64,000 nt of DNA from Paraburkholderia agricolaris (lineage in GTDB: Bacteria; Pseudomonadota; Gammaproteobacteria; Burkholderiales; Burkholderiaceae), in NCBI RefSeq assembly GCF_009455635.1, contig NZ_QPER01000002.1, positions 3,224,001 to 3,288,000 on the forward strand, given 5' to 3'. Below, piece by piece: positions 70 to 15,918 of the stretch. The notes under the pieces were generated by a model. The model was not told where the DNA came from. It searched no databases and was given only the letters and a program-made list of their open reading frames with translations. The position numbers and the translations under genes are program-made. Position 1 is the stretch's first letter. Each line of letters opens with the position of its first letter.

Positions 70-585
70 ATGTCAGTCAATTGGCCGGAAACAATCTTCG
101 AGCACTTCAAAACCGCTGATGTGCGGCAAGTAGCATATGTGCCCGATGCGGGGCACAAACGTCTTATCGAACTGTGTGAAGCAGACGCCGAAATCCACGC
201 GGTTTCGCTGACCACCGAAGAAGAAGGGGTGGCCATGATGGGCGGCGCATGGGTCGGCGGCCAGCGCGGCGTATTGCTGCTGCAGTCGAGTGGCGTGGGC
301 AACTGCATCAACATGCTCTCGCTGCAACACGAATGCCGCATGCCCATCGTGATGCTGGTCACCATGCGCGGAGAGTGGGGCGAATTCAATCCCTGGCAGG
401 TGGCAATGGGCAAATCCACCCAGCAAGCCCTCGAATCGGCCGGCGTTTATGTCTACCGCGCGGATGATCCCGCCGACGTCCCCGAGACCGTACGCGCCGC
501 ACTGAATTTTGGCTACAACACGTCCCGGATGGTCGCTGTCCTGATCGGACAGCGCGTTATCGGCACCAAAAACTTTAACAAGTGA
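70..585 (+). CDS. ThDP-dependent decarboxylase, PYR-domain subunit (ComD-like)
   Basis: This 171-residue protein resembles the alpha subunit of sulfopyruvate/phosphonopyruvate-type decarboxylases, which bind the pyrimidine ring of thiamine diphosphate. A TTEEEGVAM segment (Glu50-52) fits the conserved Glu that activates ThDP, and a Gly-rich stretch followed by SSGVGN is typical of the PYR fold. It is about half the length of a one-chain enzyme, and the next gene encodes the other half, so the two should form a heteromeric 2-oxoacid decarboxylase. The substrate cannot be read from sequence: sulfopyruvate, phosphonopyruvate or a plain 2-oxoacid are all possible. Aminotransferase and aldehyde dehydrogenase neighbours favour decarboxylation of a transaminated amino acid (inference). 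Its stop overlaps the downstream GTG start. Confidence 0.85.
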   Translation: MSVNWPETIFEHFKTADVRQVAYVPDAGHKRLIELCEADAEIHAVSLTTEEEGVAMMGGAWVGGQRGVLLLQSSGVGNCINMLSLQHECRMPIVMLVTMRGEWGEFNPWQVAMGKSTQQALESAGVYVYRADDPADVPETVRAALNFGYNTSRMVAVLIGQRVIGTKNFNK

Positions 586-1199
586 GCACGAACATGACTC
601 AGCAGACGACGCCCCTGAACCGTCGACTGACGGTGAAGCGGATTCTCCGCGATCGGCAGCAGGACGTTCTGGCAGTAACCAGCCTTGGGAATCCGACCTT
701 CGATGTTGCCGCCGCAGGAGATACGCCGCAGAACTTCTATCTTTGGGGTGCTATGGGCGGAGCTGTTTCCTTTGGACTCGGCATTGCGCTTGCACAACCT
801 GAGAAGCGCGTGATCGTGTTTGTTGGCGACGGTGAAATGATGATGGGCCTCGGATCGCTCGCGACCGTGGGCGTCGATCGGCCGGCCAATCTCTCGATCG
901 TCGTGATCGACAACGAACACTACGCGGAAACGGGTATGCAACTCGCCCATGCGGGGCGCGGTGTCGACATCACGGCAATCGCGCGCGCGGCCGGGTTCGA
1001 AAAGGCGACGACGGTCTACACGGAGGGCGAACTCGAAGAATATGTCGACGTCATTCTCAAGGCCAAGGGTCCCGTGCTCGTCACGGTAAAGGTCGGAACC
1101 GACCCCGAGCCCACCGCCCTTCCGCCCCGGGACGGTCCGTACCTGCGAAGCCGTTTCCGCGAAGCACTGCTTGGCGCGAAGGCCCACGCAAGTCAATAA
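582..1199 (+). CDS. ThDP-dependent decarboxylase, ThDP-binding subunit (ComE-like)
   Basis: This 205-residue protein is the PP-domain partner of the preceding subunit. It contains the diphosphate/Mg-binding signature GDGEMMMG (residues 82-89) followed about 25 residues later by IDNEHY with the expected Asn111. The GTG start at 582 overlaps the upstream stop (GTGA), pointing to translational coupling; an ATG at 594 is an alternative that loses only four residues. Family knowledge: ComE-like subunits bind the diphosphate of ThDP and decarboxylate 3-sulfopyruvate or related 2-oxoacids to aldehydes. The aldehyde could feed the aldehyde dehydrogenases at 4630-6183 or 12995-14473 (inference). Confidence 0.87.
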   Translation: MSTNMTQQTTPLNRRLTVKRILRDRQQDVLAVTSLGNPTFDVAAAGDTPQNFYLWGAMGGAVSFGLGIALAQPEKRVIVFVGDGEMMMGLGSLATVGVDRPANLSIVVIDNEHYAETGMQLAHAGRGVDITAIARAAGFEKATTVYTEGELEEYVDVILKAKGPVLVTVKVGTDPEPTALPPRDGPYLRSRFREALLGAKAHASQ

Positions 1200-1328
1200 G
1201 CGCCAAGGCGCGGACTCCTGAAGGAAAGCGGTGTGGCGGCTAACTGCCGCCCCACCGCTTTCTTCGCTCCCGCCCCGCTTTGCCCCCCTGTACAATCGAG
1301 ATCACCGTGACTTCACGCTGATCCCCTT

Positions 1329-2093
1329 ATGCCCGCCAAGGCCTATTCCGATATGTTGGTGGAGGTCTTTCGACAGCTGGACCGGCAGCCCGAGATGCTG
1401 GAGCGCGTCTTCGATTGCTTTCCGGACGTGCTGTATTACATCAAGGACGCTGAAGCGCGCTATCTTTCCGTCAATCAAACGCTCATCAATCGAAGCGGGA
1501 TGGCGCGCGAAGATGTGATTGGCCAGACGGCCGACCAGCTGTTTCCGGTGACCGGTGCAAGCACCAACGCGCAAGATCTGAACGTTATCGAAACCCAGTC
1601 TCCGATTGTCGATCGCCTGCGTCTTTACTCGTCAGGATCGGGACATCGATACTGGTGCCTAAGCTCCAAGTTTCCAGTTCTCAACGAGGACGGACGAGCA
1701 ATCGGACTGATCGGCATCTCGCGCGATCTGCCTCGCCCCGATGAACGGCACCACGGTTACCGCCGCTTACTGGAATATCTGGATTATCTGGAACAGAACC
1801 TCGGACAGAACATCCTGGTCACCGAAGCGGCAGAACGCGCATCTATTTCTGTCGACACGTTGGAACGCCTGACCCGTGAAGTGTTTCATCTGACGCCCAA
1901 GCAACTGCTGATGAAATTGCGGATCGACCACGCGTGCAAACTACTCGAAACGACGGACAACAGCATTACGGATATCGCGACGGACTGCGGCTACGCGGAC
2001 CACAGCGCTTTTGCGCGGCAATTCAAGTCCGCCACGCACCTCACGCCCCGACAGTATCGGAACGCGCGGGGGCGTGGCCTGCATCCACACTGA
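1329..2093 (+). CDS. AraC-family regulator with N-terminal PAS sensor domain
   Basis: The 254-residue protein has a PAS-like domain (roughly residues 22-135, with YYIKDAEARYLSVNQ) and a C-terminal AraC/XylS double helix-turn-helix (about 150-250, with DIATDCGYADHSAFARQFK). PAS-AraC proteins usually sense a small ligand directly. It lies downstream of the decarboxylase genes on the same strand after a 130-bp gap and runs tail to tail with the FAD oxidoreductase, 18 bp apart. It is a likely local activator of the surrounding catabolic genes (inference). The start was chosen at the ATG that begins just before the PAS domain. Confidence 0.9.
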   Translation: MPAKAYSDMLVEVFRQLDRQPEMLERVFDCFPDVLYYIKDAEARYLSVNQTLINRSGMAREDVIGQTADQLFPVTGASTNAQDLNVIETQSPIVDRLRLYSSGSGHRYWCLSSKFPVLNEDGRAIGLIGISRDLPRPDERHHGYRRLLEYLDYLEQNLGQNILVTEAAERASISVDTLERLTREVFHLTPKQLLMKLRIDHACKLLETTDNSITDIATDCGYADHSAFARQFKSATHLTPRQYRNARGRGLHPH

Positions 2094-2111
2094 TCAACCG
2101 CCTGCCGGGCG

Positions 2112-3275
2112 TTAGTAAACACCCTCTTCGATCACAAGTTGGCCGGACGTGAGCCGCGCCGGCGAGAGCGGCGACAGGTCCAACGTTCGGAACTCGCCGA
2201 AGGTCAGCAATTCAGCCATTGCACGACCGACGCCCGGACTGTGCATCATGCCGTGGCCGCTGAAACCAGCCGCCACGAACGAGTTTTCCGGACCTGACTG
2301 ACCGACAAGGCCGTTCTGGTCGAGAATGTTGTATTCGTAATAGCCAGCCCATGCGTGTTCCACACGTAAAGCCTCAAACGCAGGGATCCGCTCTGCCAGC
2401 GTCGGCCAGATGATCTCGTCAAACTCGGAAAACTGCACGTCGAGCGGTAGGTTATCCAGATCCATCTCCGCCGAAGGCGAGACGATGCACAGGAAATGGT
2501 TCTGCTCCCTGCGCAGGTATACGCCAGACGTATCGATCAGAATCGGCATATCCGGAATCGGCGTCGGACATGACACGACGAACGCTGAACGCCGCCTTGG
2601 CCGAACCGGCAGATCGACACCAACGCTCTTCGCAAGCGGCGCACACCACGCACCGCTCGCATTGACGAACGTATCCCCGGCAATTTCCCGCCCATCGGTC
2701 AGTTCGACGTGAGTAATCCGGTCTCCGCGTGTGCGGTAACCCGACGCTTCACCCGTGGCGAAATGAACGCCCGCCTCTCTCGCACGGTTTCTGAACCATT
2801 GCATCACGCTGTAGCCATCAAACCAGCCTTCGCCGGCAAGGCCTTCAACGGCATAAGTCAGATCGCTGACGTTCATCCACGGGTAGCGCTGCCGCAACGC
2901 TTCCGCGGAATGCTCCCCCAGCTCGACACCTAACGACCTGGCCAGAGCGCTCCGCCAACGTAGCACGCTCTCCTGCTGCGCATTGCCCACGAACAGATAG
3001 CCACAATCCACCAGATCGACACCGGCACCGTACCGCGCCTTATCCCGCTCGCAGGAGGAGAAGAATTCATAACCGAATTGCGATAGCTGAATGCAAATGG
3101 GCGTTGAAAACTGCTGCCGGATCGAACTCGCCGAAAGCGACGATGACGCGATTCTGTAGGTCGGATCTTTTTCGATCACCCAGATCTCACGTCCGGGCGT
3201 CTTCTGGAGGCTCAGGAAATACGCGATTGAACAACCAATTGCACCACCACCCGTGATGACAATCCTTTCGCTCAT
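2112..3275 (-). CDS. FAD-dependent oxidoreductase, DAO family
   Basis: This 387-residue protein belongs to the glycine oxidase/D-amino acid oxidase/sarcosine oxidase group. An N-terminal dinucleotide-binding motif (ITGGGAIGCSIAYFLS, residues 6-21) is followed by a DAO substrate domain and a C-terminal GFSGHGMMHSPGVGRAMAE segment that closes the FAD site. Members oxidise secondary or primary amines to imines. It is the last gene of a minus-strand set that starts with the aldehyde dehydrogenase at 6183 and includes an aminotransferase, so it probably works on the same amino acid or an N-substituted form of it (inference). Confidence 0.88.
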   Translation of the reverse strand: MSERIVITGGGAIGCSIAYFLSLQKTPGREIWVIEKDPTYRIASSSLSASSIRQQFSTPICIQLSQFGYEFFSSCERDKARYGAGVDLVDCGYLFVGNAQQESVLRWRSALARSLGVELGEHSAEALRQRYPWMNVSDLTYAVEGLAGEGWFDGYSVMQWFRNRAREAGVHFATGEASGYRTRGDRITHVELTDGREIAGDTFVNASGAWCAPLAKSVGVDLPVRPRRRSAFVVSCPTPIPDMPILIDTSGVYLRREQNHFLCIVSPSAEMDLDNLPLDVQFSEFDEIIWPTLAERIPAFEALRVEHAWAGYYEYNILDQNGLVGQSGPENSFVAAGFSGHGMMHSPGVGRAMAELLTFGEFRTLDLSPLSPARLTSGQLVIEEGVY

Positions 3276-3333: not shown

Positions 3334-4560
3334 CTATCGGAGCGCCACAATTTCGAGGCTTTGACACGCAGCGTGAATCCGCGCAAGCGCTTCGTTCAAG
3401 TCGTCGAGTGATGCGGCATAAGAAAGTCTGAAGTACGGCGAGAGCAGAAACCCGGAACCTGAAACAACGGCCACGTTGGCCTCTTCCAACAGGTACATGA
3501 CAAAGTCCTGGTCGTTATTCAGAAGCCTGCCGCCCGGCGTACGGCTTCTAATGACACCATGGCAACCCACAAACGCATAAAACGCGCCTTCGGGCTCGTT
3601 ACAGTGAAGTCCCGGAATATCGCTCAGCGTTTTGACTACAAGCTTCCGACGTTCGTCGAAAGCCAATCGCGATCTCTCGACGAATGACTGATCGCCATTG
3701 AGTGCTTCAATTGCAGCGTATTGCGACACCGATGACGCACTGGTGACGATCTGCCCTTGCACGAGATTCATGGCGCGGATGAGCGCAGCCGGTCCGGCGG
3801 AATAGCCAATCCGCCAGCCTGTCATCGAGTACACCTTGGAGACACCGTTGATGATGAGCGTGCGCTCCTGCAACTCCGGCGCCACGTTCAGGATATTGAT
3901 GAACGGGCTTCCGGTATAAATGAGCTTTTCGTAGATGTCGTCCGACAGCACCCAGACGTGGGGATGTCGACGTAGTACTTCGGCGATGCTGCGGAGTTCC
4001 TCAGCCGAGTAAACCGCCCCGGTCGGATTCGATGGCGAATTCAGCATCAGCCACTTGGTGCGCGGCGTGATCGACGCTTCCAGCTGCGCAGCAGTCAGTT
4101 TGAAGCCTGCCGCTTCGTCGCACGCCGCGACGATTGGCGTGCCGGTCGCCATTTTGACGATCTCCGGATAGGAGACCCAGCACGGCGCGGGTACGATCAC
4201 TTCATCGCCCGGGTTAAGAGTCGCGAAAAAGGCCGCGAAAATCGCCTGCTTCGCACCGACGGAGACGCTGACTCCATCCACCGGGTAGTCGACTCCATTG
4301 TCATGCTTCAGTTTCGCGACGATCGCCTCGCGCAACTCCCGAATACCCGCGGCCTCCGTGTAGCGTGTCTTGCCTTCGCGCATCGCACGAACCGCCGCCG
4401 CCTGGATATTCTCGGGTGTGTGAAAGTCTGGTTCGCCTTGCGACAGGGAAATGACGTTCTTCCCGGCACGGCGCAGTTCTGCCGCTTTTGCTGCCATTGC
4501 CATCGTCTGCGCAGGGGCGATCTGGCCAATGCGGTCTGCAATGAAGCCCATTGTGTTCAT
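3334..4560 (-). CDS. PLP-dependent aminotransferase, class I (aspartate aminotransferase type)
   Basis: The protein has 408 residues, normal for the family. Visible hallmarks are LSQGEPDFHTP near the N-terminus, NSPSNPTG (about 174-181), the PLP-lysine segment SKVYSMTGWR with Lys242, and a C-terminal FRLSYAASLDDL with the carboxylate-binding Arg. It should move an amino group between an amino acid and a 2-oxoacid. It lies 69 bp downstream of the aldehyde dehydrogenase and 58 bp upstream of the DAO oxidoreductase on the same strand. The resulting 2-oxoacid would suit the ThDP decarboxylase at 70-1199 (inference). Specificity cannot be set from sequence. Confidence 0.93.
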   Translation of the reverse strand: MNTMGFIADRIGQIAPAQTMAMAAKAAELRRAGKNVISLSQGEPDFHTPENIQAAAVRAMREGKTRYTEAAGIRELREAIVAKLKHDNGVDYPVDGVSVSVGAKQAIFAAFFATLNPGDEVIVPAPCWVSYPEIVKMATGTPIVAACDEAAGFKLTAAQLEASITPRTKWLMLNSPSNPTGAVYSAEELRSIAEVLRRHPHVWVLSDDIYEKLIYTGSPFINILNVAPELQERTLIINGVSKVYSMTGWRIGYSAGPAALIRAMNLVQGQIVTSASSVSQYAAIEALNGDQSFVERSRLAFDERRKLVVKTLSDIPGLHCNEPEGAFYAFVGCHGVIRSRTPGGRLLNNDQDFVMYLLEEANVAVVSGSGFLLSPYFRLSYAASLDDLNEALARIHAACQSLEIVALR

Positions 4561-4590
4561 TCCGTTTGTTTTAAAAGCCTACCGTGTGAA

Positions 4591-4618: not shown

Positions 4619-4629
4619 AACACGCACGC

Positions 4630-6183
4630 TTACAGACGTTCAGCCACTGCCTTCATTTGCAGGAACTGCAGAAGGTAGTCGGGACCACCCGTCTTGGTAT
4701 CGGTACCCGTGAGGTTGAAGCCGCCGAACGGCTGAACACCGACCAGCGCGCCCGTACACTTGCGGTTGAAGTACAGATTGCCAACGTGGAAATCGCGGCG
4801 GGCTCGTTCAATGCGGCTGCGGTCGTTCGAGAAGAGCGCACCGGTCAGCCCGTAGACCGTGTCATTGACCACGGCCAGACCTTCCTCGAAATCCTTGACG
4901 CGGATCGCGGCAACGAACGGTCCGAACACTTCCTCTTGTGCAATGCGCGCGCGGGGCGACACGTCGCCGAAGATGGTCGGCTCGATCAGATAGCCCGCTG
5001 CATTTTCCACGGCCTTGCCGCCGGTCAGCAGCTTGCCCTCGGTGTGACCGATGTCGATATACGACAGCACCTTCTTGTACTGCAGCTCATTGCACACCGG
5101 ACCAAAACTCGGATTGTCCTTCGCCTCGCTGACAACGAGTTCCTTCGTCTTCGCGACGACCTTCTCGAGCAAGGCGTCATAGACCGAATCCACCACGATC
5201 AGACGCGAGCAGGCCGAACACTTCTGGCCGGAATAGCCGAAGGCTGCCTGGATCACTGCAGTCGCTGCGTCATCGAGATTGGCCGTTTCATCGACAAGAA
5301 TCGCGTCCTTGCCACCCAGTTCGAGGAAGACCCGCTTGAACCATTTCTGGCCTTCGGCAAGCTTCGCAGCGGACTCGTTGATCTGGGCGCCGGTTGCGAG
5401 CGAGCCCGTGAAGTTGATGAAGCGCGTTTTCGGATGGGCGACCAGATACGACCCGATTTCGCGTCCGGTACCCGGCAGATAATTCACCACGCCAGGCGGC
5501 AAACCTGCTTCGGCGAAGATGTCGAAGATCTTGGCGAGGGACACCACCGTATCTTCCGCAGGCTTGCAAACCACCGTGTTACCCACCACGATCGCGCCGA
5601 CCGTCATGCCGGTCATCAACGCCATCGGAAAATTCCACGGCGAAATCGTCACGCCCACGCCGAGCGGGATATAGAAACTCTCGTTCTCTTCACCGGAATA
5701 ATCGATCAACGAGCCGAGGCCGCCGACATGCTTGATAGCCTGGCGTGCATAGTACTCGGTGAAGTCGATCATTTCCGCAACTTCGGCGCTGGCCTCGACA
5801 TAGTTCTTGCCGATTTCATAGACCAGCCATGCCTCGAGTTCGCGCTTGCGCCTGCGCATGATTGCGGCGGCCTTCAACATGACGCGCGATCGATCCTCTT
5901 GGCTCCAACGCTTCCACGATTCGAAGGCCGCCCAGGCGGCTTCCAGCGCGGCGTCCGCGTGCCGCGTCGTCGCCTTGGCGGTATAGCCAACGACCTCTTC
6001 CGGATTCGACGGATTGGTCGAGACGAGTGTCGCCTCGGTCTGCACGCGCTCGCCATTGATAATCAGCGGATATGTCTTGCCAAACTCGGCACGCACCTTC
6101 TTCAGTGCCTGCTGCATGTCTGCCTTGGTACTTTCGGTGTCGAATAAATCGAACGGCTCGTTCTTGAACGGCGCAATCAACAT
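4630..6183 (-). CDS. Aldehyde dehydrogenase, 1-pyrroline-5-carboxylate dehydrogenase type
   Basis: The 517-residue enzyme has the full aldehyde dehydrogenase fold: SPWNFPMAL, catalytic Glu288 in FLELGGKD, nucleophile Cys322 in [10 protein letters not shown], and a C-terminal [17 protein letters not shown] stretch typical of the P5C dehydrogenase/RocA group. It oxidises a semialdehyde to the acid with NAD(P). It is the first gene of a minus-strand group with an aminotransferase and a DAO oxidoreductase, and it faces the LysR gene at 6475 across a 291-bp divergent promoter. Substrate may be glutamate semialdehyde or the product of the ThDP decarboxylase (inference). A second P5C-type enzyme lies at 48415-50034. 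Confidence 0.9.
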
Positions 6184-6474: not shown

Positions 6475-7395
6475 ATGGCCATGCATTTCGATCTGATTGA
6501 TCTTCGTCTCATCACATGTATTGCTGAGACGGATAGCTTGACGCGTGGTGCCGAGCGGTTTCATATGTCTGTCCCCGCGGCAAGCACTCGCATCAAGAAT
6601 CTGGAAGAAAGCATGGGGGCAAAACTGCTGTACCGGACCAGCCAGGGGGTTACCCTGACGCCACCGGGTCAGGCATTTCTTCACCACGCCCGGCTCGTCC
6701 TGTCGCAGCTCGAACAGTTGCGCGGCGACATGCAGGAGTACGCACGCGGTGTGAAAGGCCATGTGCGGATTTTTGCGAACACTACCGCAACCACTGAATT
6801 CCTCCCCAACGACCTGCGCGACTTTCTCGCCGAGCATCCCGACGTGAACGTCGAGCTTCGCGAACGTTTGAGCCATGACGTGGTGCGCGCGGTCAGTGAA
6901 GGCACTGCGGACGTCGGCATAGTGGCAGGTAATGTCCGACCGGAATCCCTGCGCGTCCTGCCATACCGCTCGGATCGCCTCATACTGGCTGTTTCGAATT
7001 CGCATCCCCTCGCCGGGAAGACGTCGATCCCGTTCGAGCAGGCGACCGGGTTTGACTTCGTGGGAATGCCTGAGGCTAGCGCGATACACACGTTTCTGGA
7101 CCGCGTAGCAAACGACATGCACAAGAAGCTTCAGGTGCGAATTGAAGTGGGCAACTTCGAAGCACTGTGCCGAATGATCGAGGCCAACGTCGGGATCGGC
7201 GTGTTGCCTTGCTCGTCAGCGGTACGCTACGTGAAAACCATGAACATCAGGCTCGTTGAAATCGAAGACGACTGGGCGACGCGAAATCTCCTGATCTGCG
7301 TGCGCAACCTCGACCTGCTGCCGTCTTTCGCGCGGGAACTGGTCGACCTCCTCACGCAGAAGTGCAAGACCGATCCTGGGCCCCAGCCAGCCTGA
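6475..7395 (+). CDS. LysR-family transcriptional regulator
   Basis: The 306-residue protein has the N-terminal winged HTH (residues 5-65; ETDSLTRGAERFHMSVPAAS) and a LysR substrate-binding domain (about 95-295). It is transcribed away from the aldehyde dehydrogenase gene and sits just upstream of the hydratase-to-aldehyde-dehydrogenase operon, the classic LysR position for controlling both sides. Two in-frame ATGs (6475 and 6481) are close together; the first is used. A small hairpin (GCCTGA..TCAGGC, 7390-7404) overlaps its stop codon. The ligand is unknown, but probably an intermediate of the local pathway. Confidence 0.92.
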   Translation: MAMHFDLIDLRLITCIAETDSLTRGAERFHMSVPAASTRIKNLEESMGAKLLYRTSQGVTLTPPGQAFLHHARLVLSQLEQLRGDMQEYARGVKGHVRIFANTTATTEFLPNDLRDFLAEHPDVNVELRERLSHDVVRAVSEGTADVGIVAGNVRPESLRVLPYRSDRLILAVSNSHPLAGKTSIPFEQATGFDFVGMPEASAIHTFLDRVANDMHKKLQVRIEVGNFEALCRMIEANVGIGVLPCSSAVRYVKTMNIRLVEIEDDWATRNLLICVRNLDLLPSFARELVDLLTQKCKTDPGPQPA

Positions 7396-7500: not shown

Positions 7501-8385
7501 ATGACTGCTGAACTCGACTACCTGCGCACCTGGATCGGCCGTACCCAGACCGAACGCGAATTTGTCTCGCCGCGTCTCGCGCAACAACTCGCTGCCACGC
7601 TGGACTATGAGGACGTGCCGCGTGTCGGCGGGCGGTTGCCTCCGTTGTGGCACTGGGCGTTTTTTCCTCACATTGTTTCGCAGTCGCAGGTCGGCGCGGA
7701 CGGACATCCGACACGCGGTGGCTTCCTGCCGCCGGTGCCGTTGCCAAGACGCATGTGGGCGGGCAGCCGCGTCCGGTTCGAGCGGTCACTCGTGGTCGGC
7801 AGCGAAGTCTCAAGGACGTCGCAGATTCTCGACGTGGCCGCCAAAGAAGGGCGCACAGGAAAGCTGGTGTTTGTCCGTCTGCGTCACGAACTGGAAGACC
7901 TCGAAGGTCCACTGATTTCCGAAGAACAGGACGTTGTGTATCGCGAGTCCGCAGCAACCGCGTACACCGCGGCAACCGGCCCGCGCGCGCCGACCGATTT
8001 CACATGGAGACGGGAGATCGTACCGGATCCGGTACTACTTTTTCGCTACTCCGCCGATACCTTCAACGGGCATCGTATTCACTATGACCGCACCTACGCT
8101 AATGAACAGGAAGGCTATCCGGCGCTCGTCGTCCATGGGCCACTGACTGCGACGTTGCTGATCGATCTGCTTCGTCGCAGCCTGCCAGGCGAGTCAATTG
8201 CTTCTTTCTCGTTCAAAGCGGTCAACCCGCTCTTTGACAGCGCCCCTTTTTCTATCTATGCAGCCCGTATGCCCGGATCAACCGAAGTAAAGCTCTGGGC
8301 AGCCAATCCCGACGGCGTGTTGTGCATTGATGCCGTGGCGACGCTGACGGCGCCCGCGCATGCCTTTCAAGAAAATGAACTCTGA
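7501..8385 (+). CDS. FAS1-like dehydratase/MaoC hydratase (mesaconyl-C4-CoA or itaconyl-CoA hydratase type)
   Basis: This 294-residue protein has an N-terminal FAS1-like dehydratase/hot-dog half (residues 1-150, with GGFLPPVPLPRRMWAGS) and a C-terminal MaoC-like half (about 170-280). Fungal HTD2 and bacterial mesaconyl-C4-CoA hydratases share this layout. Members hydrate 2,3-unsaturated acyl-CoAs. It opens a six-gene plus-strand operon (7501-14473) with an acyl-CoA dehydrogenase 14 bp downstream, which would supply its enoyl-CoA substrate. The CitE-like lyase in the same operon could cleave its hydroxyacyl-CoA product (inference). Confidence 0.83.
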   Translation: MTAELDYLRTWIGRTQTEREFVSPRLAQQLAATLDYEDVPRVGGRLPPLWHWAFFPHIVSQSQVGADGHPTRGGFLPPVPLPRRMWAGSRVRFERSLVVGSEVSRTSQILDVAAKEGRTGKLVFVRLRHELEDLEGPLISEEQDVVYRESAATAYTAATGPRAPTDFTWRREIVPDPVLLFRYSADTFNGHRIHYDRTYANEQEGYPALVVHGPLTATLLIDLLRRSLPGESIASFSFKAVNPLFDSAPFSIYAARMPGSTEVKLWAANPDGVLCIDAVATLTAPAHAFQENEL

Positions 8386-8401
8386 GGAGTAGAGACAAGT
8401 G

Positions 8402-9559
8402 ATGGCCAACATCGACCCCTATCAGGACATTCGCGAAGCCGTTCGCGATTTGTGTTCCAACTTTCCCGCCGAGTACTTCCGCAAGATCGACGAGGAACGA
8501 GCCTACCCCGAGACCTTTGTACAAGCCCTGACCGACGCCGGTTGGCTGGCGGCCCTCATTCCACAGGAATATGGGGGTTCGGGGCTCGGATTGACGGAAG
8601 CTTCGGTCATCATGGAAGAGATCAATCGCAGCGGTGGCAATTCCGGTGCTTGTCACGGGCAGATGTACAACATGGGGACGCTGCTCAGGCACGGCTCTGC
8701 AGAGCAAAAGGCCAGATATCTTCCGGAAATCGCCTGCGGAAAGTTGCGACTTCAGTCCATGGGCGTGACCGAGCCGACGACCGGCACCGACACCACCAAA
8801 CTCAAGACGACTGCGGTTCGCAAGGGTGACCGTTATGTGGTCAATGGCCAGAAGGTCTGGATCTCTCGGGTTCAACACTCCGACCTGATGATTCTGCTGG
8901 CGCGAACCACACCGATCGATCAGGTTGCAAAGAAATCGGAGGGCATGTCGATCTTCCTGGTCGACTTGCATCAGGCAATCCGCAAAGGCATGACGGTTCG
9001 CCCGATTCCGAACATGGTGAATCACGAGACTAACGAACTTTTTTTCGACAACCTCGAGATCCCCGCCGAAAACCTGATCGGCGAAGAAGGCAAAGGCTTC
9101 AAGTACATTCTTGATGGCCTGAACGCCGAGCGCACACTCATTGCCGCCGAATGTATCGGCGATGGGTACTGGTTCCTTGACAAGGTCTGTAAGTACGTTA
9201 AAGAACGCGTCGTCTTCGGTCGCCCGATTGGACAGAACCAGGGCGTGCAGTTTCCGATCGCCCGCGCGTACGTCAACGTCGAAGCGGCGAGCTTGATGCG
9301 CTATAAGGCCTGCGAGCTTTTCGACGCAAAACAGCCAGCCGGCGCGCAAGCCAATATGGCCAAGCTACTCGCCGCAGACGCTTCGTGGGAAGCCGCAAAC
9401 GCTTGCCTGCAATTCCATGGCGGCTTTGGTTTTGCCAACGAATACGACGTCGAACGCAAGTTCCGCGAAACCCGGCTCTATCAGGTCGCACCGATCTCGA
9501 CCAATCTCATTCTCTCGTACGTAGCCGAGCATCTGCTCGGGCTGCCACGTTCTTTCTAA
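8402..9559 (+). CDS. Acyl-CoA dehydrogenase
   Basis: About 385 residues, with the three-domain acyl-CoA dehydrogenase layout: N-terminal helices, a beta domain with MGVTEPTTGTDTTKLKTTA and WISRVQHSD, and a C-terminal helical domain ending in LQFHGGFGFANEYDVERKFRETRLYQ cut short by the family's usual close. It should introduce a trans-2,3 double bond into an acyl-CoA with FAD, passing electrons to ETF. ATG 8402 is preferred; a GTG directly in front (8399) is the alternative. It lies between the hydratase and the CoA transferase, matching an activation-dehydrogenation-hydration series. The chain is probably short and branched or dicarboxylic given the company it keeps (inference). Confidence 0.93.
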   Translation: MANIDPYQDIREAVRDLCSNFPAEYFRKIDEERAYPETFVQALTDAGWLAALIPQEYGGSGLGLTEASVIMEEINRSGGNSGACHGQMYNMGTLLRHGSAEQKARYLPEIACGKLRLQSMGVTEPTTGTDTTKLKTTAVRKGDRYVVNGQKVWISRVQHSDLMILLARTTPIDQVAKKSEGMSIFLVDLHQAIRKGMTVRPIPNMVNHETNELFFDNLEIPAENLIGEEGKGFKYILDGLNAERTLIAAECIGDGYWFLDKVCKYVKERVVFGRPIGQNQGVQFPIARAYVNVEAASLMRYKACELFDAKQPAGAQANMAKLLAADASWEAANACLQFHGGFGFANEYDVERKFRETRLYQVAPISTNLILSYVAEHLLGLPRSF

Positions 9560-10771: not shown

Positions 10772-12148
10772 ATGAGCAACACCCAGATTCTTGCCTCGTT
10801 TGCGGCCAATCTGAAGTTTGAACAGATACCCAAGGACGTGGTGGCCCGCACGGAAGACCTCTTCCTCGACTGGTTCGGGTCAGCACTGGCCGGCCGCGCG
10901 GCGCGCCCGGTCGAGACGATCCAGAAGTACGGATTCGCTTTCGGTCCGCAGTCCGGTCCCTGTGAAGTACTGATCTCCCGCCGAACCACCAGCCCGCTCT
11001 TCGCGGCAATGATCAACGCCGCCGCATCGCACTTCGCCGAACAGGACGACCTCCACAACAGCTCAGTCCTGCACCCGGCAACCGTCGTCTTCCCCGCAGC
11101 ATGGGCCGCCGCGCAAGCGCTGGGCAGAAGCGGCAAAGAGTTCATCGCTGCATCTGTCGCGGGCTATGAAGTGGGCATCCGCGTCGGTGAATTCCTCGGC
11201 CGATCGCACTACAAGATTTTTCATACCACCGGTACCGTCGGTACGATCGCAGCAGCAGCCGCGGTCGGCAATCTCCTGCGATTGAGCGCCGAGCAGATGG
11301 TGAATGCGTTTGGCTCCGCCGGCACCCAGGCAGCAGGACTCTGGGAATTCCTTAAAGACGCCGCTGACTCCAAGCAACTGCATACGGCCAAGGCGGCGGC
11401 GAACGGTCTTCTCGCGGCCTACCTGGCAGCTGACGGCTTCACCGGTGCGAAGGACATCTTCGAGGGCGCGAAAGGCATGGGCGCCGGCATGTCCACGCAT
11501 ACGCACCCGGACAAACTCGCCGAAGCGCTCGGAGAGCGCTGGGCGCTGATCGAAACCTCTTTCAAGTATCACGCTTCCTGCCGGCACACTCATCCGGCGG
11601 CCGATGCCCTGCTGCAGGTTATTCAGCGCGAAAACCTCGTGCCGGATGACATCGAGACGGTGGTGACTCAGGTTCACCAGGCTGCGATCGACGTGCTTGG
11701 ACCGGTAATCGATCCCCAGACGGTCCATCAGGCAAAGTTCTCCATGGGCACCGTACTCGCGCTGGTCGCGGAATTCGGCCACGCGGGCGTACGTGAGTTC
11801 GACGGCCATTACAACGAAAGCAGGATCGCGCACTTCTGCAAGAAAGTTTCGATGGTGCTCGATCCCGAAGTCGATACGGCCTATCCGTCACGCTGGATTG
11901 GAAAGGTCATCGTTCAGACAAAGGATGGTCGCTCCTTCGAGGGCCGCGTGGATGATCCCAAGGGCGATCCAGGCAACACGCTCACGCGCGCCGAACTCGA
12001 ACACAAGACCATCACGCTGGGTTTGTATGGCAATGCGGCCACCGAAGACGAACTCAAGCACTCAATCACATCGGTATGGACGATTACCGATGCAACCGTT
12101 GTACCCAGACTGCTCCCCGAATCGAAACTGGAGGCCCAACATGGCTGA
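10772..12148 (+). CDS. MmgE/PrpD family protein
   Basis: The 458-residue protein matches the MmgE/PrpD superfamily, which includes 2-methylcitrate dehydratase, cis-aconitate decarboxylase and iminodisuccinate epimerase. It shows the helical N-terminal domain (DWFGSALAGR, about 30-40), the AAASHFAEQDDLHNSSVLHP region that lines the active site, and SFKYHASCRHTHPAADA. Activity cannot be chosen from sequence; isomerisation, dehydration or decarboxylation of a polycarboxylate would all fit. Its last eight bases overlap the start of the CitE-like gene, so the two are translationally coupled. Confidence 0.88.
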   Translation: MSNTQILASFAANLKFEQIPKDVVARTEDLFLDWFGSALAGRAARPVETIQKYGFAFGPQSGPCEVLISRRTTSPLFAAMINAAASHFAEQDDLHNSSVLHPATVVFPAAWAAAQALGRSGKEFIAASVAGYEVGIRVGEFLGRSHYKIFHTTGTVGTIAAAAAVGNLLRLSAEQMVNAFGSAGTQAAGLWEFLKDAADSKQLHTAKAAANGLLAAYLAADGFTGAKDIFEGAKGMGAGMSTHTHPDKLAEALGERWALIETSFKYHASCRHTHPAADALLQVIQRENLVPDDIETVVTQVHQAAIDVLGPVIDPQTVHQAKFSMGTVLALVAEFGHAGVREFDGHYNESRIAHFCKKVSMVLDPEVDTAYPSRWIGKVIVQTKDGRSFEGRVDDPKGDPGNTLTRAELEHKTITLGLYGNAATEDELKHSITSVWTITDATVVPRLLPESKLEAQHG

Positions 12149-12968
12149 CCTTGCACCCCGGTCGTATCTCTTCGTTCCCGGCAACCGGCCGGACAGATTT
12201 GCCAAGGCGGCGGCGTCGGGCGTCGATGTTGTCGTTATCGATCTGGAAGATGCGGTGCCGCCCGCCGAGAAGAAGATCGCGCGGGCAGCCCTCGCTGAGT
12301 GGCTTTCGACAAACGGTACGCCCGTGGCGGTCCGTGTGAATGATGTGAACAGCGAATGGTTTCGCGACGACATCGCCGTATGCCGCGCGCCCTCCGTCGC
12401 CGCCGTCATGCTGCCCAAGACGGAACGCATCGACGATATCTTCCTGTGCGAGTTCGCCGGCAAGCCGACCGACATCTTGCCGATGATCGAAACGGCCCAA
12501 GGTTTTCGGAATGTGGTCGCCATCGCCCAGCACCGGCTGACCACTCGACTCGTGTTCGGCAACGTGGATTTCCAGCTCGACCTCGGCATTGACGGCGACG
12601 ATGAGCAGCTTCTGTACTTCCGCTCACAGATCGTCTTCGCCTCTCGCATCGGCAACCTGCTGGCGCCGGTGGACGGGGTGAGCACCACACTCGACGATCC
12701 CGCGCAGATCACGCGCGACACGGTCCGTGCAAAGCGGCTCGGCTTCGGCGCCAAGCTTTGCATTCATCCGAGGCAAGTGGCCGCAGTCAACGCCGCGTTC
12801 GTCCCCAGCGAGAGGGATGTCGAATGGGCGCACCGGGTTGTCGAAGGCGCAGCTGCATCCCACGGCGCGGCCGTTGCCGTGGACGGTCGCATGGTTGACC
12901 GGCCGGTCATTCTGAAGGCGCAGGAAATCCTGGCAGAGTCACAACGACGCCTGCCCGTTGGCGCCTGA
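12141..12968 (+). CDS. HpcH/HpaI-CitE family CoA-ester lyase
   Basis: The start is the ATG at 12141, preceded by GGAGG and overlapping the MmgE/PrpD stop; the open frame extends upstream but that part is out-of-frame coding sequence. The 275-residue product begins with RSYLFVPGNRPDRF, then VIDLEDAVPPAEK with the metal-binding acidic residue, PMIETAQGF, and KLCIHPRQVAAVNAAF. These are diagnostic of CitE-like (malyl/citramalyl-CoA type) lyases. Such enzymes split a 3-hydroxyacyl-CoA into acetyl- or propionyl-CoA and a 2-oxoacid. In this operon it is the obvious final C-C cleavage step (inference). Confidence 0.9.
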   Translation: MADLAPRSYLFVPGNRPDRFAKAAASGVDVVVIDLEDAVPPAEKKIARAALAEWLSTNGTPVAVRVNDVNSEWFRDDIAVCRAPSVAAVMLPKTERIDDIFLCEFAGKPTDILPMIETAQGFRNVVAIAQHRLTTRLVFGNVDFQLDLGIDGDDEQLLYFRSQIVFASRIGNLLAPVDGVSTTLDDPAQITRDTVRAKRLGFGAKLCIHPRQVAAVNAAFVPSERDVEWAHRVVEGAAASHGAAVAVDGRMVDRPVILKAQEILAESQRRLPVGA

Positions 12969-12994
12969 TTCAATATCAATGGGAGACGAGAGTC

Positions 12995-14473
12995 ATGCAA
13001 CGGTTTGAGATGTATATCAACGGCGAATCTTGCCAGTCCGGTTCGGGAGAGTGGTTCGATACGGAAAATCCGTTCACGGGAGAAACCTGGGCGCAGATTG
13101 CAAAAGGCAACGGGACCGACGTCGACCGCGCGGTCCTTGCGGCGCATACCGCGTTCAGTACAGGACCATGGTCACAGATGTCTCCGAGCCAGCGAGGCCT
13201 GCTGCTTCATCGGGTCGGCGACCTGATCGCACGAGACGCAAAGCGGCTTGCCGAGCTCGAAGTTCAGGACAACGGCAAGCTCATCGCGGAGATGCTCGGC
13301 CAGTGCCAGTATTTGCCCCAGTGGTATTACTATTTCGGCGGCCTGGCGGACAAGATTCAGGGTGCGGTCATTCCGCTCGACAAGAAAGGCTATTTCAACT
13401 TCACGCGCAACGAACCGCTGGGTGTCGTCGCCGCCATCACGCCGTGGAATTCGCCGCTTTTGCTGGCTACGTGGAAGATTGCACCCGCGTTGGCCGCAGG
13501 TTGCACGGTTGTGATCAAACCGTCCGAGTTCACGTCGGCTTCCACCATCGAGTTTGCGAAGCTCTTCACCGAAGCCGGCTTTCCACCGGGCGTAGTGAAC
13601 GTTGTGACCGGATTCGGTGCGGACGTTGGCTCGCCTTTGGTGGAACACCCGCTGGTCAAGAAGATCACGTTCACCGGCGCAGACTCCACAGGCCGCGCGA
13701 TCAACGAGGCGGCAGCGCGTCAATTCAAACACGTTAGTCTCGAACTCGGCGGCAAGTCACCCAACATCGTGTTCGAAGATGCCGATCTCGAGGACGCAGT
13801 GAATGGCGCGGTTTCCGGCATCTTCGCCGCGACCGGACAGACCTGTATTGCCGGTTCGCGGCTGTTGCTGCAAGAAAGCATCTACGATACGTTCGTCGAC
13901 AAACTCCTGAGGCTGGCACGTACCGCGAAAATGGGCGATCCGTCGAATATGGATACACAGGTCGGACCGGTAACGACGCGTCCTCAATACCAGAAGGTTC
14001 TCTCGTACATTGAAACCGCAAAGCAGGAAGGGGCGACGCTGCTGCTCGGTGGAAAACCTGGGAGCGCACCTGAATGCGGTAATGGCTGGTTCGTCGAGCC
14101 GACCATTTTCGGTGACGTGAACAACAGGATGCGAATCGCGCAGGAGGAAGTTTTTGGCCCCATCCTGTCGATCATCAAGTTCAAAGACGAAGACGACGCG
14201 GTTGCACTGGCCAATGATGTGCGCTTCGGTCTGGGCTCAGGGGTATGGACGAAAGATATCGGCCGCTCCATTCGTGTCGCCGAAAAGCTGCAGGCCGGCA
14301 TGGTCTGGGTGAACAGCTATCGCGCGGTGAGCTACATGTCACCGTTTGGCGGCTACAAGGATTCGGGACTTGGTCGCGAGAATGGTATCGACGCGATCCG
14401 CGAGTATCTGCAAACGAAGAGCGTCTGGATCAATACGGGGGTCAAGACTGCAAACCCCTTCGTCATGAGATAA
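12995..14473 (+). CDS. Aldehyde dehydrogenase (betaine-aldehyde dehydrogenase type)
   Basis: A standard 492-residue aldehyde dehydrogenase: ITPWNSPLLLATWKIAPALA, Glu250 in SLELGGKSPN, catalytic Cys284 in TGQTCIAGSR, and the C-terminal SPFGGYKDSGLGRENG. It differs from the P5C-type enzyme upstream and is closer to broad NAD-dependent aldehyde dehydrogenases. It is the last gene of the hydratase operon and is followed at once by a strong hairpin terminator. It may oxidise the aldehyde released by the ThDP decarboxylase (inference). Confidence 0.92.
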   Translation: MQRFEMYINGESCQSGSGEWFDTENPFTGETWAQIAKGNGTDVDRAVLAAHTAFSTGPWSQMSPSQRGLLLHRVGDLIARDAKRLAELEVQDNGKLIAEMLGQCQYLPQWYYYFGGLADKIQGAVIPLDKKGYFNFTRNEPLGVVAAITPWNSPLLLATWKIAPALAAGCTVVIKPSEFTSASTIEFAKLFTEAGFPPGVVNVVTGFGADVGSPLVEHPLVKKITFTGADSTGRAINEAAARQFKHVSLELGGKSPNIVFEDADLEDAVNGAVSGIFAATGQTCIAGSRLLLQESIYDTFVDKLLRLARTAKMGDPSNMDTQVGPVTTRPQYQKVLSYIETAKQEGATLLLGGKPGSAPECGNGWFVEPTIFGDVNNRMRIAQEEVFGPILSIIKFKDEDDAVALANDVRFGLGSGVWTKDIGRSIRVAEKLQAGMVWVNSYRAVSYMSPFGGYKDSGLGRENGIDAIREYLQTKSVWINTGVKTANPFVMR

Positions 14474-14480
14474 ATGTGAC

Positions 14481-14508: not shown

Positions 14509-14554
14509 TCCAGATTCGATCAGTATGACGAACGGATCACTCGACGAGCATGTT

Positions 14555-15040
14555 TCAGGACTTGATCCCTTGTGCCGCTTTGGTGCTCGGCGCCCGGACC
14601 TCCAACGTGACCCCTGCCCCTTCGTTGACCGTCTTGAAGTACGTGAAGCCGCTTCGATCATCGAGGCGCCCGCGTGCCAGAACATCCAGCCCCATGTTCG
14701 CAGCCTGTTCCTCTGCTTTATCGCAGCTCTCCACAGAGAAGCCAAGATGAAATACGCCCTCTCCACGCGTTTCCAGAAAACGTCGTTGCGGCGTGTCTCC
14801 GTCTCCTGGCTGGCAAAGCTGTAGCTGAGCGTTGTCGATGTTCGCGAACTTATAACGCATCTTCAGAAAGGCTGGGCGCTCGTAACCGTCCAGTTCGTAC
14901 GCATCCATCGGCGGAAAATCCGTCCACGGACCGACTCCGATCGATTCGTAATACTTCACGGCCTTCCCGATATCGCGAACCACGATGCAGACGTGGTGTA
15001 GCTTCTGAAACATGGGCAGCTTTTCCATCGTGTGTTTCAC
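14555..15040 (-). CDS. VOC family protein (methylmalonyl-CoA epimerase/glyoxalase type)
   Basis: The 161-residue protein has the vicinal oxygen chelate pattern: FQKLHHVCIVVRDIGKAVKYY at the start and GVFHLGFSVESCDKAEE in the second half, giving the His/Glu metal ligands expected of the fold. The arrangement recalls methylmalonyl-CoA epimerase. It lies 68 bp downstream of the quinone reductase on the same strand and probably shares its promoter. An epimerase acting on a 2-methyl-branched CoA intermediate of the neighbouring operon would be consistent (inference), but isomerase or dioxygenase activity is not excluded. An alternative start is the internal ATG five codons in. Confidence 0.83.
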   Translation of the reverse strand: MKHTMEKLPMFQKLHHVCIVVRDIGKAVKYYESIGVGPWTDFPPMDAYELDGYERPAFLKMRYKFANIDNAQLQLCQPGDGDTPQRRFLETRGEGVFHLGFSVESCDKAEEQAANMGLDVLARGRLDDRSGFTYFKTVNEGAGVTLEVRAPSTKAAQGIKS

Positions 15041-15108
15041 TCCTCGTCAGGTTCAATGCCGGGCCACAGAAACGCTCGAAAGCAGCGGCAGCCCGACGTC
15101 ACAGCGGA

Positions 15109-15918
15109 TCATCCCGCCTTCGCAATCTTCTTCGGCGTGTAGGTTTGCGCCGCCTCGTCGTGCGACTGGCCGACGGCAGGGTTCCACTGAAAGCCGGAAC
15201 GGGCCACGACGCCTGGCTTCAGACGCTGGTCCGGACCAAAGTCGGCAAAGGGGTGAAAGAACAAGGGCTGCGTGCTCTCGATCGCACGCAACCGCTCCGC
15301 GTAGGAATCGAGGTATGCCTGCCGGTCTTCAGGGCTCACACGGCCAGGCATCCATGCCACGTGCGGCGGCAGCACTTCGAAGCCGAGGTAATTGAAGATT
15401 CCGTTGTGAATCGGCCAGAGAATGTGATTGATATCCCCGTCGACACCGTCCGGCTCGTAGAGGCTCGCGGCCGTTCCCGTCGTGGTCGAAACCATTGCCT
15501 TGCGGCCCTTGAACATGCCGGTCTCGTATTTGCGCCCGGTCGCATAGGCGAATCCGCGGGTCATCACGCGATCCACCCAGCCCTTCAGGATCGCGGGCAT
15601 GCCGAACCACCACATTGGATACTGGAAAATGATCAGATCGCTCCAGAGCACCTTCTGTTGTTCGGCGTAGACGTCAGGCGTTGGTTTCGTGAACGTCGCG
15701 AACATATGTTCCTGTTCCGCCGACAGATCGAGGAAATCAGGATTGAGACGCTCGCCCACGAAATCTTCGACGCCGAGCTCGGGCCGCCAATTCAGTTGAT
15801 ACAGGTCTGTTACCTGAACCTCATGTCCTTGCGCCTTCAAGGTCGAGACAGCCGTATCTTTCAGCGCACCGTTGAACGACCTGGGTTCAGGGTGAGCGAA
15901 GACGATGAGCACTTTCAT
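15109..15918 (-). CDS. NAD(P)H dehydrogenase (quinone), flavodoxin-like fold
   Basis: The 269-residue protein starts MKVLIVFAHPEPRSFNGALKD, the signature of the NQO1/modulator-of-drug-activity flavoproteins, and contains FQYPMWWFGMPAILKGWVDRV and the MVSTTTGTAA loop. It should reduce quinones or nitro compounds with NAD(P)H using FMN or FAD. The upstream intergenic region holds an operator-like element shared with the aldehyde dehydrogenase at 6183, so expression is probably tied to the catabolic locus. Its own role there may be protective (inference). Confidence 0.9.
   Translation of the reverse strand: MKVLIVFAHPEPRSFNGALKDTAVSTLKAQGHEVQVTDLYQLNWRPELGVEDFVGERLNPDFLDLSAEQEHMFATFTKPTPDVYAEQQKVLWSDLIIFQYPMWWFGMPAILKGWVDRVMTRGFAYATGRKYETGMFKGRKAMVSTTTGTAASLYEPDGVDGDINHILWPIHNGIFNYLGFEVLPPHVAWMPGRVSPEDRQAYLDSYAERLRAIESTQPLFFHPFADFGPDQRLKPGVVARSGFQWNPAVGQSHDEAAQTYTPKKIAKAG

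What the first reader, a model, noticed from the sequence alone, without database searches (positions are those of the whole stretch)
70..15918. Enzyme set fits an undescribed route from an amino acid to a cleaved hydroxyacyl-CoA
The locus has, in order of logic, an aminotransferase, a two-subunit ThDP decarboxylase, two aldehyde dehydrogenases, a family III CoA transferase, an acyl-CoA dehydrogenase, a hydratase of the mesaconyl/itaconyl-CoA type and a CitE-like lyase, next to an amino acid importer. A 3-methylglutamate-like amino acid would give methylsuccinate, then mesaconyl-CoA and citramalyl-CoA, and finally acetyl-CoA and pyruvate. I know no described pathway with this exact set. The gene functions come from sequence; the pathway is inference. 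The ComDE-like decarboxylase also leaves a sulfonate amino acid open.
Basis: partly seen in the sequence, partly recalled or inferred. Interest (0 to 1): 0.8.

Follow-up and report, generated by a model that had tools for sequence, protein, structure and literature searches.

The report
Amino-acid route to methylsuccinate breakdown
A soil-type bacterium carries one gene block that appears to take up an unusual methylated proline-like amino acid, convert it to methylsuccinate and split that into two central metabolites; the second half is known chemistry, while the first half looks undescribed and would give methylsuccinate a natural source.

Summary
The gene set is really there, and it is conserved in 18 of 22 related genomes compared (17 in the same order as far as the fetched DNA goes, one rearranged). 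It has two parts. The lower part (7501-12968) is not new: it is the published itaconate/methylsuccinate module (Ich, Mcd, Ict, Msi, Ccl). The upper part is the interesting one. An aldehyde dehydrogenase sits in the same operon as the methylsuccinate genes and recurs with a two-subunit ThDP decarboxylase. Among 398 family genomes this P5CDH (E <= 1e-180) occurs in 8, each time in this cluster. I infer: methylated proline (4-methylproline most likely), methylglutamate semialdehyde, methylglutamate, methyl-2-oxoglutarate, methylsuccinate semialdehyde, methylsuccinate, then acetyl-CoA and pyruvate. All substrates are inferred.

The parts
70..585 (+). ThDP-dependent 2-oxoacid decarboxylase, alpha (N-terminal) subunit
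   Evidence: PF02776; best NCBIfam sulfopyruvate decarboxylase alpha, below cut-off
582..1199 (+). ThDP-dependent 2-oxoacid decarboxylase, beta (C-terminal) subunit; overlaps alpha by 4 bases
   Evidence: PF02775; best solved relative a phosphonopyruvate decarboxylase beta subunit, 9iz3
1329..2093 (+). PAS-AraC regulator, conserved with the cluster
   Evidence: PF12833, PF08448; >=60% in 18 of 22 genomes
2112..3275 (-). DAO-family FAD oxidase; proposed methylproline oxidase
   Evidence: PF01266; 47% identical to the DAO beside a piperidine-6-carboxylate dehydrogenase in the same genome; best PDB match 1y56_B, listed as sarcosine oxidase
3334..4560 (-). class I aminotransferase of the aspartate type; proposed methylglutamate aminotransferase
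   Evidence: PF00155; PRK06107 550.2 bits, below cut-off 617; best PDB matches aspartate aminotransferases B and A, 6f35 and 6f77
4630..6183 (-). 1-pyrroline-5-carboxylate (glutamate-5-semialdehyde) dehydrogenase
   Evidence: TIGR01237 726.3 bits, above cut-off 659.65; aligned over full length to solved P5CDH 2bhp; 8 of 398 family genomes at E <= 1e-180, each in this cluster
6475..7395 (+). LysR-type regulator upstream of the methylsuccinate operon
   Evidence: PF03466, PF00126; 58-61% identical to a LysR 1-8 kb (start to start) from Ccl in 7 of 8 fetched loci of the canonical methylsuccinate cluster
7501..8385 (+). Ich, itaconyl-CoA/mesaconyl-C4-CoA hydratase
   Evidence: best solved relative itaconyl-CoA hydratase 8khg, E 5.9e-71
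8399..9559 (+). Mcd, methylsuccinyl-C4-CoA dehydrogenase
   Evidence: acyl-CoA dehydrogenase domains; no NCBIfam model above its cut-off; assigned by family and operon partners as in PMC12290011
9570..10748 (+). Ict, itaconate/methylsuccinate CoA transferase
   Evidence: PF02515; no NCBIfam model above its cut-off; assigned by family and operon partners as in PMC12290011
10772..12148 (+). Msi, (S)/(R)-methylsuccinate isomerase of the MmgE/PrpD family
   Evidence: PF03972, PF19305; H87 E90 H101 Y147 H151 K201 K265 match the residues named in PMC12290011 with an offset of one
12141..12968 (+). Ccl, (S)-citramalyl-CoA lyase
   Evidence: PF03328; RipC 166.8 bits, below cut-off 375; best solved relatives 8khl and 9nzb, acyl-CoA lyase beta chains
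12995..14473 (+). ALDH2, proposed methylsuccinate-semialdehyde dehydrogenase; 26 bases after Ccl, same operon
   Evidence: PF00171; >=54% identical homologue in 23 of 80 loci fetched by the decarboxylase alone
15109..15918 (-). Flavodoxin_2 family oxidoreductase, conserved with the cluster, role unknown
   Evidence: PF02525; best NCBIfam KefF, below cut-off; >=60% in 17 of 22 genomes
16313..21296 (-). LivFGMHK-type ABC importer (16313-17065, 17031-17882, 17879-19168, 19165-20082, 20169-21296)
   Evidence: closest solved relatives of the binding protein 3ip5 and leucine-specific binding protein 1usg

Best explanation
The block is one catabolic pathway for a C-methylated proline, most likely 4-methylproline, with 3-methylproline also possible. 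LivKHMGF imports it. The DAO-family oxidase oxidises the N-C5 bond to methyl-pyrroline-5-carboxylate, which opens to methylglutamate-5-semialdehyde. P5CDH gives methylglutamate. The aminotransferase gives methyl-2-oxoglutarate. The two-subunit ThDP enzyme removes CO2 to give methylsuccinate semialdehyde. ALDH2 gives methylsuccinate. The known module then finishes: Msi brings (S) to (R), Ict makes (R)-methylsuccinyl-C4-CoA, Mcd makes mesaconyl-C4-CoA, Ich makes (S)-citramalyl-CoA and Ccl splits it to acetyl-CoA and pyruvate. Shown here: gene families, operon layout, conserved order, Msi active-site residues, P5CDH membership. Inferred: every substrate above methylsuccinate, the methyl position, and the transport step. 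My own derivation: the configuration at C4 is untouched and its CIP priorities keep their order, so a (4R)-methyl substrate should give (R)-methylsuccinate directly and a (4S)-methyl one (S)-methylsuccinate, which would explain why Msi is kept.
For: Lower half equals the published five-gene methylsuccinate cluster (PMC12290011: abstract, whole Results and Discussion read). ALDH2 follows Ccl by 26 bases in that operon. Block kept, as far as the fetched DNA goes, in 12 of 15 same-genus genomes with ThDP-beta >=79% and in 5 of 5 other-genus genomes with >=80% in the sample. In G373 a different order (AraC, P5CDH, LivKHMGF, DAO, Flav, ThDP, ALDH2, Msi) keeps much of the unit together. P5CDH is above its curated cut-off and at E <= 1e-180 occurs in 8 of 398 family genomes, each in the cluster, and at E <= 1e-150 in 1 of 399 sampled order genomes, the own one. 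The genome has a proline dehydrogenase domain in a 1423-aa frame that also holds an aldehyde dehydrogenase (PutA-like), so plain proline is covered. The DAO is 47% identical to one next to a piperidine-6-carboxylate dehydrogenase (NF050084, 806 bits, above cut-off 730) in the same genome: a cyclic imino acid oxidase paired with the dehydrogenase for its ring size. Of 80 loci fetched by ThDP-beta alone, 20 carry Mcd >=60%, 23 ALDH2 >=54% and 12 both, in 1.19 Mb, whereas 103 of 141 sampled same-genus genomes carry 1-3 Mcd copies per genome of mostly 7-10 Mb. The binding protein's closest solved relative is 3ip5; Atu2422 is reported to serve uptake of GABA and, as deduced, proline, alanine and valine (PMC5924552 passage; that 3ip5 is Atu2422 is recalled). 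4-Methylglutamate-5-semialdehyde and 3-methyl-pyrroline-5-carboxylate are known intermediates on the biosynthetic route from leucine to 4-methylproline (PMC5676206 passages).
Against: No experiment and no substrate shown. Nothing in the sequence sees the methyl group directly; it is inferred from the methylsuccinate module. G117 keeps ThDP next to the methylsuccinate operon but lacks the DAO, this aminotransferase and P5CDH; G047 and G074 have ThDP without the methylsuccinate module in the stretches fetched; G472 has only ThDP and ALDH2. Less similar ThDP pairs (46-56%) in G034, G124 and G054 lie about 20 kb from a methylsuccinate operon; in G034, the one annotated, Rieske-type oxygenase and FAA-hydrolase genes surround them, so the decarboxylase family need not always use methyl-2-oxoglutarate. 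60 of the 80 named loci show no Mcd >=60% (10 of these 60 are under 10 kb). G373's DAO is only 38% identical, its Ccl-like gene 33%, and tblastn with the window proteins saw no AT, Ict, Ich or close Mcd beside the cluster; Mcd is elsewhere in that genome. In G010 the DAO reading appears interrupted. The AmaA-like label rests on a neighbour gene named in one locus (L177); no NCBIfam model matched that DAO at E <= 1e-30, and a few database names of its relatives say sarcosine, dimethylglycine or 4-methylaminobutanoate oxidase. Mapping the LivK pocket onto 3ip5 was inconclusive.
Confidence: 0.55

Rival explanations
1. Open-chain substrate, close to the first reader: the cell imports 3- or 4-methylglutamate or 4-methyleneglutamate; the aminotransferase, ThDP enzyme and ALDH2 make methylsuccinate or itaconate, and DAO plus P5CDH serve a side substrate.
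For: The chain from methylglutamate down is identical; Ict and Ich also handle itaconate (PMC12290011). G117 (L052) has an aminotransferase, an aldehyde dehydrogenase and a 3-hydroxyisobutyrate-dehydrogenase-like gene but no DAO or P5CDH near the same operon.
Against: DAO, aminotransferase and P5CDH form one conserved run in 17 of 22 genomes, and P5CDH tracks the cluster in 8 of 8 family genomes that have it; a side role would not demand this. Mcd and Msi are not needed for itaconate.
Confidence: 0.2
2. Another C-methylated or ring-substituted precursor of the same node, for example 5-hydroxyleucine, 4-methyleneproline or 4-hydroxymethylproline, feeds methylglutamate semialdehyde.
For: 5-hydroxyleucine is one oxidation from 4-methylglutamate semialdehyde (PMC5676206 passages). 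ThDP variants in G074 and G047 lie near GMC oxidoreductases, in G074 also with an aminotransferase and an aldehyde dehydrogenase.
Against: No alcohol dehydrogenase was found among the genes scanned at 70-21296, and the DAO is most like one with a cyclic imino acid partner.
Confidence: 0.13
3. Two unrelated neighbours: an itaconate/methylsuccinate operon beside an ordinary proline-type amino acid operon.
For: Each half can stand alone: the canonical methylsuccinate cluster shows no ThDP in the 8 fetched loci that hold it; in 7 of the 8 an AmaA/AmaB-like pair lies within 3-11 kb, but those seven of the nine loci were picked because Mcd and a DAO shared a contig.
Against: ALDH2 is inside the methylsuccinate operon; the halves stay together in four genera (g1, g10, g12, g25); 7 of the 14 same-genus genomes with the ThDP-Mcd cluster are listed with at least one further Mcd copy, so this copy looks specialised.
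Confidence: 0.08
4. A sulfonate or phosphonate amino acid (cysteate type) is transaminated and decarboxylated by a ComDE-like enzyme.
For: Best NCBIfam names of the two subunits include sulfopyruvate and phosphonopyruvate decarboxylase; the acyl-CoA dehydrogenase has a weak match to 3-sulfinopropanoyl-CoA desulfinase, 200.9 against a cut-off of 600.
Against: All of these are below the curated cut-offs; no sulfonate or phosphonate enzyme reached its cut-off among the genes scanned at 70-21296 in the listed matches; partners act on C5 dicarboxylates.
Confidence: 0.02

Closest known systems
Itaconate/methylsuccinate degradation cluster of Pseudomonas aeruginosa PA0878-0886 and Cupriavidus necator (PMC12290011, PMC9875883)
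   Same: Ich, Mcd, Ict, Msi and Ccl families in one cluster; Msi active-site residues conserved
   Different: Here the operon also holds an aldehyde dehydrogenase and is joined to a decarboxylase, aminotransferase, P5CDH, FAD oxidase and amino acid importer that would make methylsuccinate
AmaA/AmaB L-pipecolate branch of lysine catabolism in Pseudomonas (PMC12930750 passage)
   Same: oxidation of a cyclic imino acid followed by a dehydrogenase for the ring-opened semialdehyde
   Different: P5CDH (five-membered ring) replaces the piperidine-6-carboxylate dehydrogenase, and the product goes on to a decarboxylase
PutA proline catabolism
   Same: pyrroline-5-carboxylate chemistry ending in a glutamate
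   Different: unfused, with a DAO-family oxidase and not a Pro_dh domain; a PutA-like gene is present elsewhere in the genome
Sulfopyruvate decarboxylase ComDE
   Same: two short ThDP subunits
   Different: below curated cut-offs; dicarboxylate context
Itaconate reduction to methylsuccinate by gut IrdA (as told in PMC12290011)
   Same: a biological source of methylsuccinate
   Different: anaerobic reduction of itaconate, not oxidation of an amino acid

Membership tests
Itaconate/methylsuccinate five-gene cluster | Ich, Mcd, Ict, Msi and Ccl families side by side | tested here: met
   7501-12968
Itaconate/methylsuccinate five-gene cluster | Msi residues His88, Glu91, His102, Tyr148, His152, Lys202, Lys266 (P. 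aeruginosa numbering) | tested here: met
   H87 E90 H101 Y147 H151 K201 K265; the paper says most are shared by the whole MmgE/PrpD family
Itaconate/methylsuccinate five-gene cluster | measured activity on methylsuccinate and its CoA esters | not testable with these tools
   needs enzyme assays
RipC itaconate C-C lyase (NF038242) | score above curated cut-off | tested here: not met
   166.8 against 375 bits; the P. aeruginosa-type and Y. pestis-type clusters are said to be convergent (PMC12290011)
L-glutamate-5-semialdehyde (P5C) dehydrogenase TIGR01237 | score above curated cut-off | tested here: met
   726.3 against 659.65 bits
L-pipecolate oxidase AmaA | DAO-family oxidase paired with a piperidine-6-carboxylate dehydrogenase | tested here: inconclusive
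   window DAO is 47% identical to a DAO with that partner, but is itself paired with P5CDH
Sulfopyruvate decarboxylase ComDE | TIGR03845 and TIGR03846 above cut-off | tested here: not met
   114.9 against 147.95; 136.2 against 221.5 bits
N-methyltryptophan oxidase / sarcosine oxidase beta family | NCBIfam score above cut-off | tested here: not met
   63.4 against 257 and 59.6 against 529.45 bits
Branched-chain amino acid binding protein PRK15404 | score above cut-off | tested here: not met
   363.7 against 477 bits; closest solved relative is 3ip5

The most novel reading that the evidence does not exclude
A previously undescribed aerobic pathway: a methylated proline (for example from nonribosomal peptides; plant sources are recalled) is oxidised through methylglutamate and methyl-2-oxoglutarate, decarboxylated by a new specificity of a two-subunit ThDP enzyme, and delivered as methylsuccinate to the known module. 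The ThDP pair recurs near Mcd-like genes in Proteobacteria and in one Acidobacteria and one Gemmatimonadetes MAG (20 of 80 loci, 12 of them with an ALDH2-like gene), with different upstream enzymes, so that amino acids and 2-hydroxy acids would be widespread natural sources of methylsuccinate.
Probability: 0.45. Interest if true: 0.7.

Novelty: new variant of a known kind. Interest (0 to 1): 0.55.

Why it matters
[quoted passage not shown] If true, this locus offers an aerobic source with named enzymes and a named candidate nutrient, predicts which stereoisomer needs the isomerase, gives a function to a ThDP decarboxylase subfamily whose closest curated names are sulfopyruvate and phosphonopyruvate decarboxylase, and would suggest that soil bacteria eat methylated proline of the kind found in peptide antibiotics.

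Tried and rejected
Considered and rejected. Sulfonate/phosphonate route: scores below cut-offs. Plain proline or hydroxyproline catabolism ending in succinate: a PutA-like gene is elsewhere, and the methylsuccinate genes would be pointless. The two halves as unrelated neighbours: conserved in four genera and, in part, in a rearranged form in a fifth. MmgE/PrpD as 2-methylcitrate dehydratase or cis-aconitate decarboxylase: the curated PrpD model scores only 39.7 against 950 bits, the gene sits among its published partners, and Msi residues are present, though the family shares most of them; the nearest solved chains are labelled IRG1 and IDS epimerase.

Led nowhere. Ligand prediction for the binding protein by mapping pocket residues on 3ip5 was inconclusive (the position list was recalled). 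Names of DAO relatives were mostly generic, with a few sarcosine, dimethylglycine or 4-methylaminobutanoate oxidase labels (best 120 listed of 3760 and 7942). The genes around G472's ThDP pair showed no methylsuccinate module. An unidentified gene upstream of the G373 cluster matches LacI-family regulators.

Literature. In the listed titles and abstract starts of searches (20 of 34 papers listed; 20 of 98; 15 of 32,904; 20 of 95; 15 of 45; 12 of 33) I saw no paper on methylproline catabolism, methylsuccinate semialdehyde or a decarboxylase for methyl-2-oxoglutarate; the unlisted papers were not seen. In one search no listed paper held the methylsuccinate-semialdehyde terms, and the one title naming a 4-methyl-2-oxoglutarate is about the 4-hydroxy compound. 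The library is open-access only, so older or subscription work may exist. PMC6667623 (legend passage) and PMC12930750 (passage) give the AmaA and AmaB names in opposite order; I follow the latter.

Full report
What is in the sequence. The window is G000:C2:3224001-3288000 of an 8.7 Mb, two-contig genome. Its closest named relatives by the ThDP gene are Paraburkholderia. Pfam and NCBIfam give a coherent set. On the plus strand: ThDP decarboxylase alpha and beta, a PAS-AraC regulator, then a LysR regulator followed by Ich, Mcd, Ict, MmgE/PrpD, Ccl and an aldehyde dehydrogenase (ALDH2); from Ich to ALDH2 the gaps are 10-26 bases, with MmgE/PrpD and Ccl overlapping. On the minus strand: P5CDH, aminotransferase and DAO oxidase, and further on a Flavodoxin_2 protein and a five-gene Liv-type importer.

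The lower half is known. PMC12290011 (abstract, whole Results and Discussion read) shows with purified enzymes that Ict prefers (R)-methylsuccinate, the MmgE/PrpD protein interconverts (S) and (R), and the acyl-CoA dehydrogenase makes mesaconyl-C4-CoA; the Ich and Ccl steps to acetyl-CoA and pyruvate are taken there from earlier work and seen in cell extracts. The window's MmgE/PrpD protein has all seven residues named there, with an offset of one. Ich is closest to a solved itaconyl-CoA hydratase.

The upper half. ALDH2 lies inside the methylsuccinate operon, which makes an aldehyde precursor of methylsuccinate likely. The ThDP pair scores below the curated sulfopyruvate decarboxylase cut-offs. 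The aminotransferase is of the aspartate type. The first aldehyde dehydrogenase is a true P5CDH: above its cut-off and aligned over its full length to a solved P5CDH. The DAO is 47% identical to a second DAO of the same genome that sits next to a piperidine-6-carboxylate dehydrogenase scoring 806 against a cut-off of 730. In the pipecolate branch AmaA takes L-pipecolate to piperideine-6-carboxylate and AmaB takes that to 2-aminoadipate (PMC12930750 passage). Here the same type of oxidase is paired with the dehydrogenase for a five-membered ring. Joined to a methylsuccinate module this points to a methylated proline. PutA-like proline catabolism is present elsewhere in the genome.

Conservation. 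ThDP-beta orthologues of >=79% identity occur in 16 of 144 genus genomes including the own one. In 12 of the other 15 the run is kept as far as the fetched sequence goes (G008's contig ends inside Mcd); G117 keeps ThDP plus the methylsuccinate operon and ALDH2 but not DAO, this aminotransferase or P5CDH; G047 and G074 keep the ThDP pair without the rest. All 5 orthologues of >=80% in other genera of the family sample carry the run. G373, of a further genus, has another order with AraC, P5CDH, LivKHMGF, a 38% DAO, Flavodoxin_2, ThDP, ALDH2 and Msi, and its Mcd genes lie elsewhere. G472 has only ThDP and ALDH2. That makes 18 of 22. P5CDH at E <= 1e-180 is present in 8 of 398 family genomes, each time in this cluster, and at E <= 1e-150 in 1 of 399 order genomes, the own one.

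Wider association. Twenty of 80 carry Mcd >=60%, 23 ALDH2 >=54%, 13 Ict >=45%, and 12 both Mcd and ALDH2, in 1.19 Mb. The other fifteen include Burkholderiales, Alphaproteobacteria, a Granulosicoccaceae MAG, an Acidobacteria MAG, a Gemmatimonadetes MAG (Mcd 75%, Ict 51%, ALDH2 36%, Ccl 36%, Msi 39%, DAO 30%) and Novosphingobium sp. Chol11, where an FMN-dependent 2-hydroxyacid-dehydrogenase-type gene stands nearby. For comparison, 103 of 141 genus genomes carry 1-3 Mcd copies each at this similarity. Results the other way: 60 of 80 loci show no such Mcd, 10 of them under 10 kb; and of 15 genus ThDP copies at 46-53%, 13 were looked at, of which three have Mcd within about 5 kb, three have a methylsuccinate operon about 20 kb away, and seven show neither; around G034's pair lie aromatic-degradation genes.

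Mechanism. The proposed steps are in Best explanation. The reactions from methylsuccinate on rest on homologues with published assays. The steps above it rest on family membership, gene order and chemical logic. 4-Methylproline is preferred over 3-methylproline because 4-methylglutamate-5-semialdehyde and 3-methyl-pyrroline-5-carboxylate are known intermediates of its biosynthesis from leucine (PMC5676206 passages), but both isomers would end in methylsuccinate. The importer fits a small neutral amino or imino acid: its binding protein is closest to 3ip5, and Atu2422 is reported to serve GABA, proline, alanine and valine (PMC5924552 passage; that 3ip5 is Atu2422 is recalled). The Flavodoxin_2 gene is conserved but unexplained.

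Verdict. Observation confirmed; interpretation partly supported and refined. [quoted passage not shown] Novelty: a new front end on a known module.

Noticed in passing
L157-L162 (G034, G124, G054): A methylsuccinate operon (Mcd 97% identical) lies about 20 kb from a different ThDP-ALDH2 pair; in G034 the genes around that pair include Rieske-type oxygenases, FAA hydrolases and an RraA-like aldolase, perhaps an aromatic route into C5 dicarboxylates.
   Followed up: partly
L163 (G075:C100:33000-52935), 6837-19005: A 58% DAO paralogue clusters with an aminotransferase (46%), 5-oxoprolinase-like carboxyltransferase and LamB/YcsF genes, a biotin carboxylase, ETF subunits and a Liv-type permease: possibly a lactam amino acid route.
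   Followed up: partly
L177 (own genome C2:3484000-3503999): The own genome keeps an Ich homologue (46%) beside the AmaA/AmaB-like pair; seven of eight other fetched genus loci, most picked for this proximity, hold such a pair and the full canonical methylsuccinate cluster, so the rest of that cluster seems lost here.
   Followed up: partly
L170-L175, L178: In these genus loci the canonical itaconate/methylsuccinate cluster lies within 3-11 kb of a DAO-aldehyde dehydrogenase pair like the one named piperidine-6-carboxylate dehydrogenase in L177.
   Followed up: no
L051 (G010), about 4500-5700: The DAO reading appears interrupted (two pieces, 84% and 77%) while the neighbouring genes give single matches.
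   Followed up: no
window 26455-29439, minus strand: A PLP-dependent decarboxylase (Pyridoxal_deC) next to an amino acid permease.
   Followed up: no
window 36942-40988, minus strand: A 1348-aa CheB-CheR-PAS-histidine kinase-receiver hybrid.
   Followed up: no
window 48415-59046: Aldehyde dehydrogenase, glutamine-synthetase-like, FMN oxidoreductase and amino acid permease genes, perhaps a gamma-glutamyl amine pathway.
   Followed up: no
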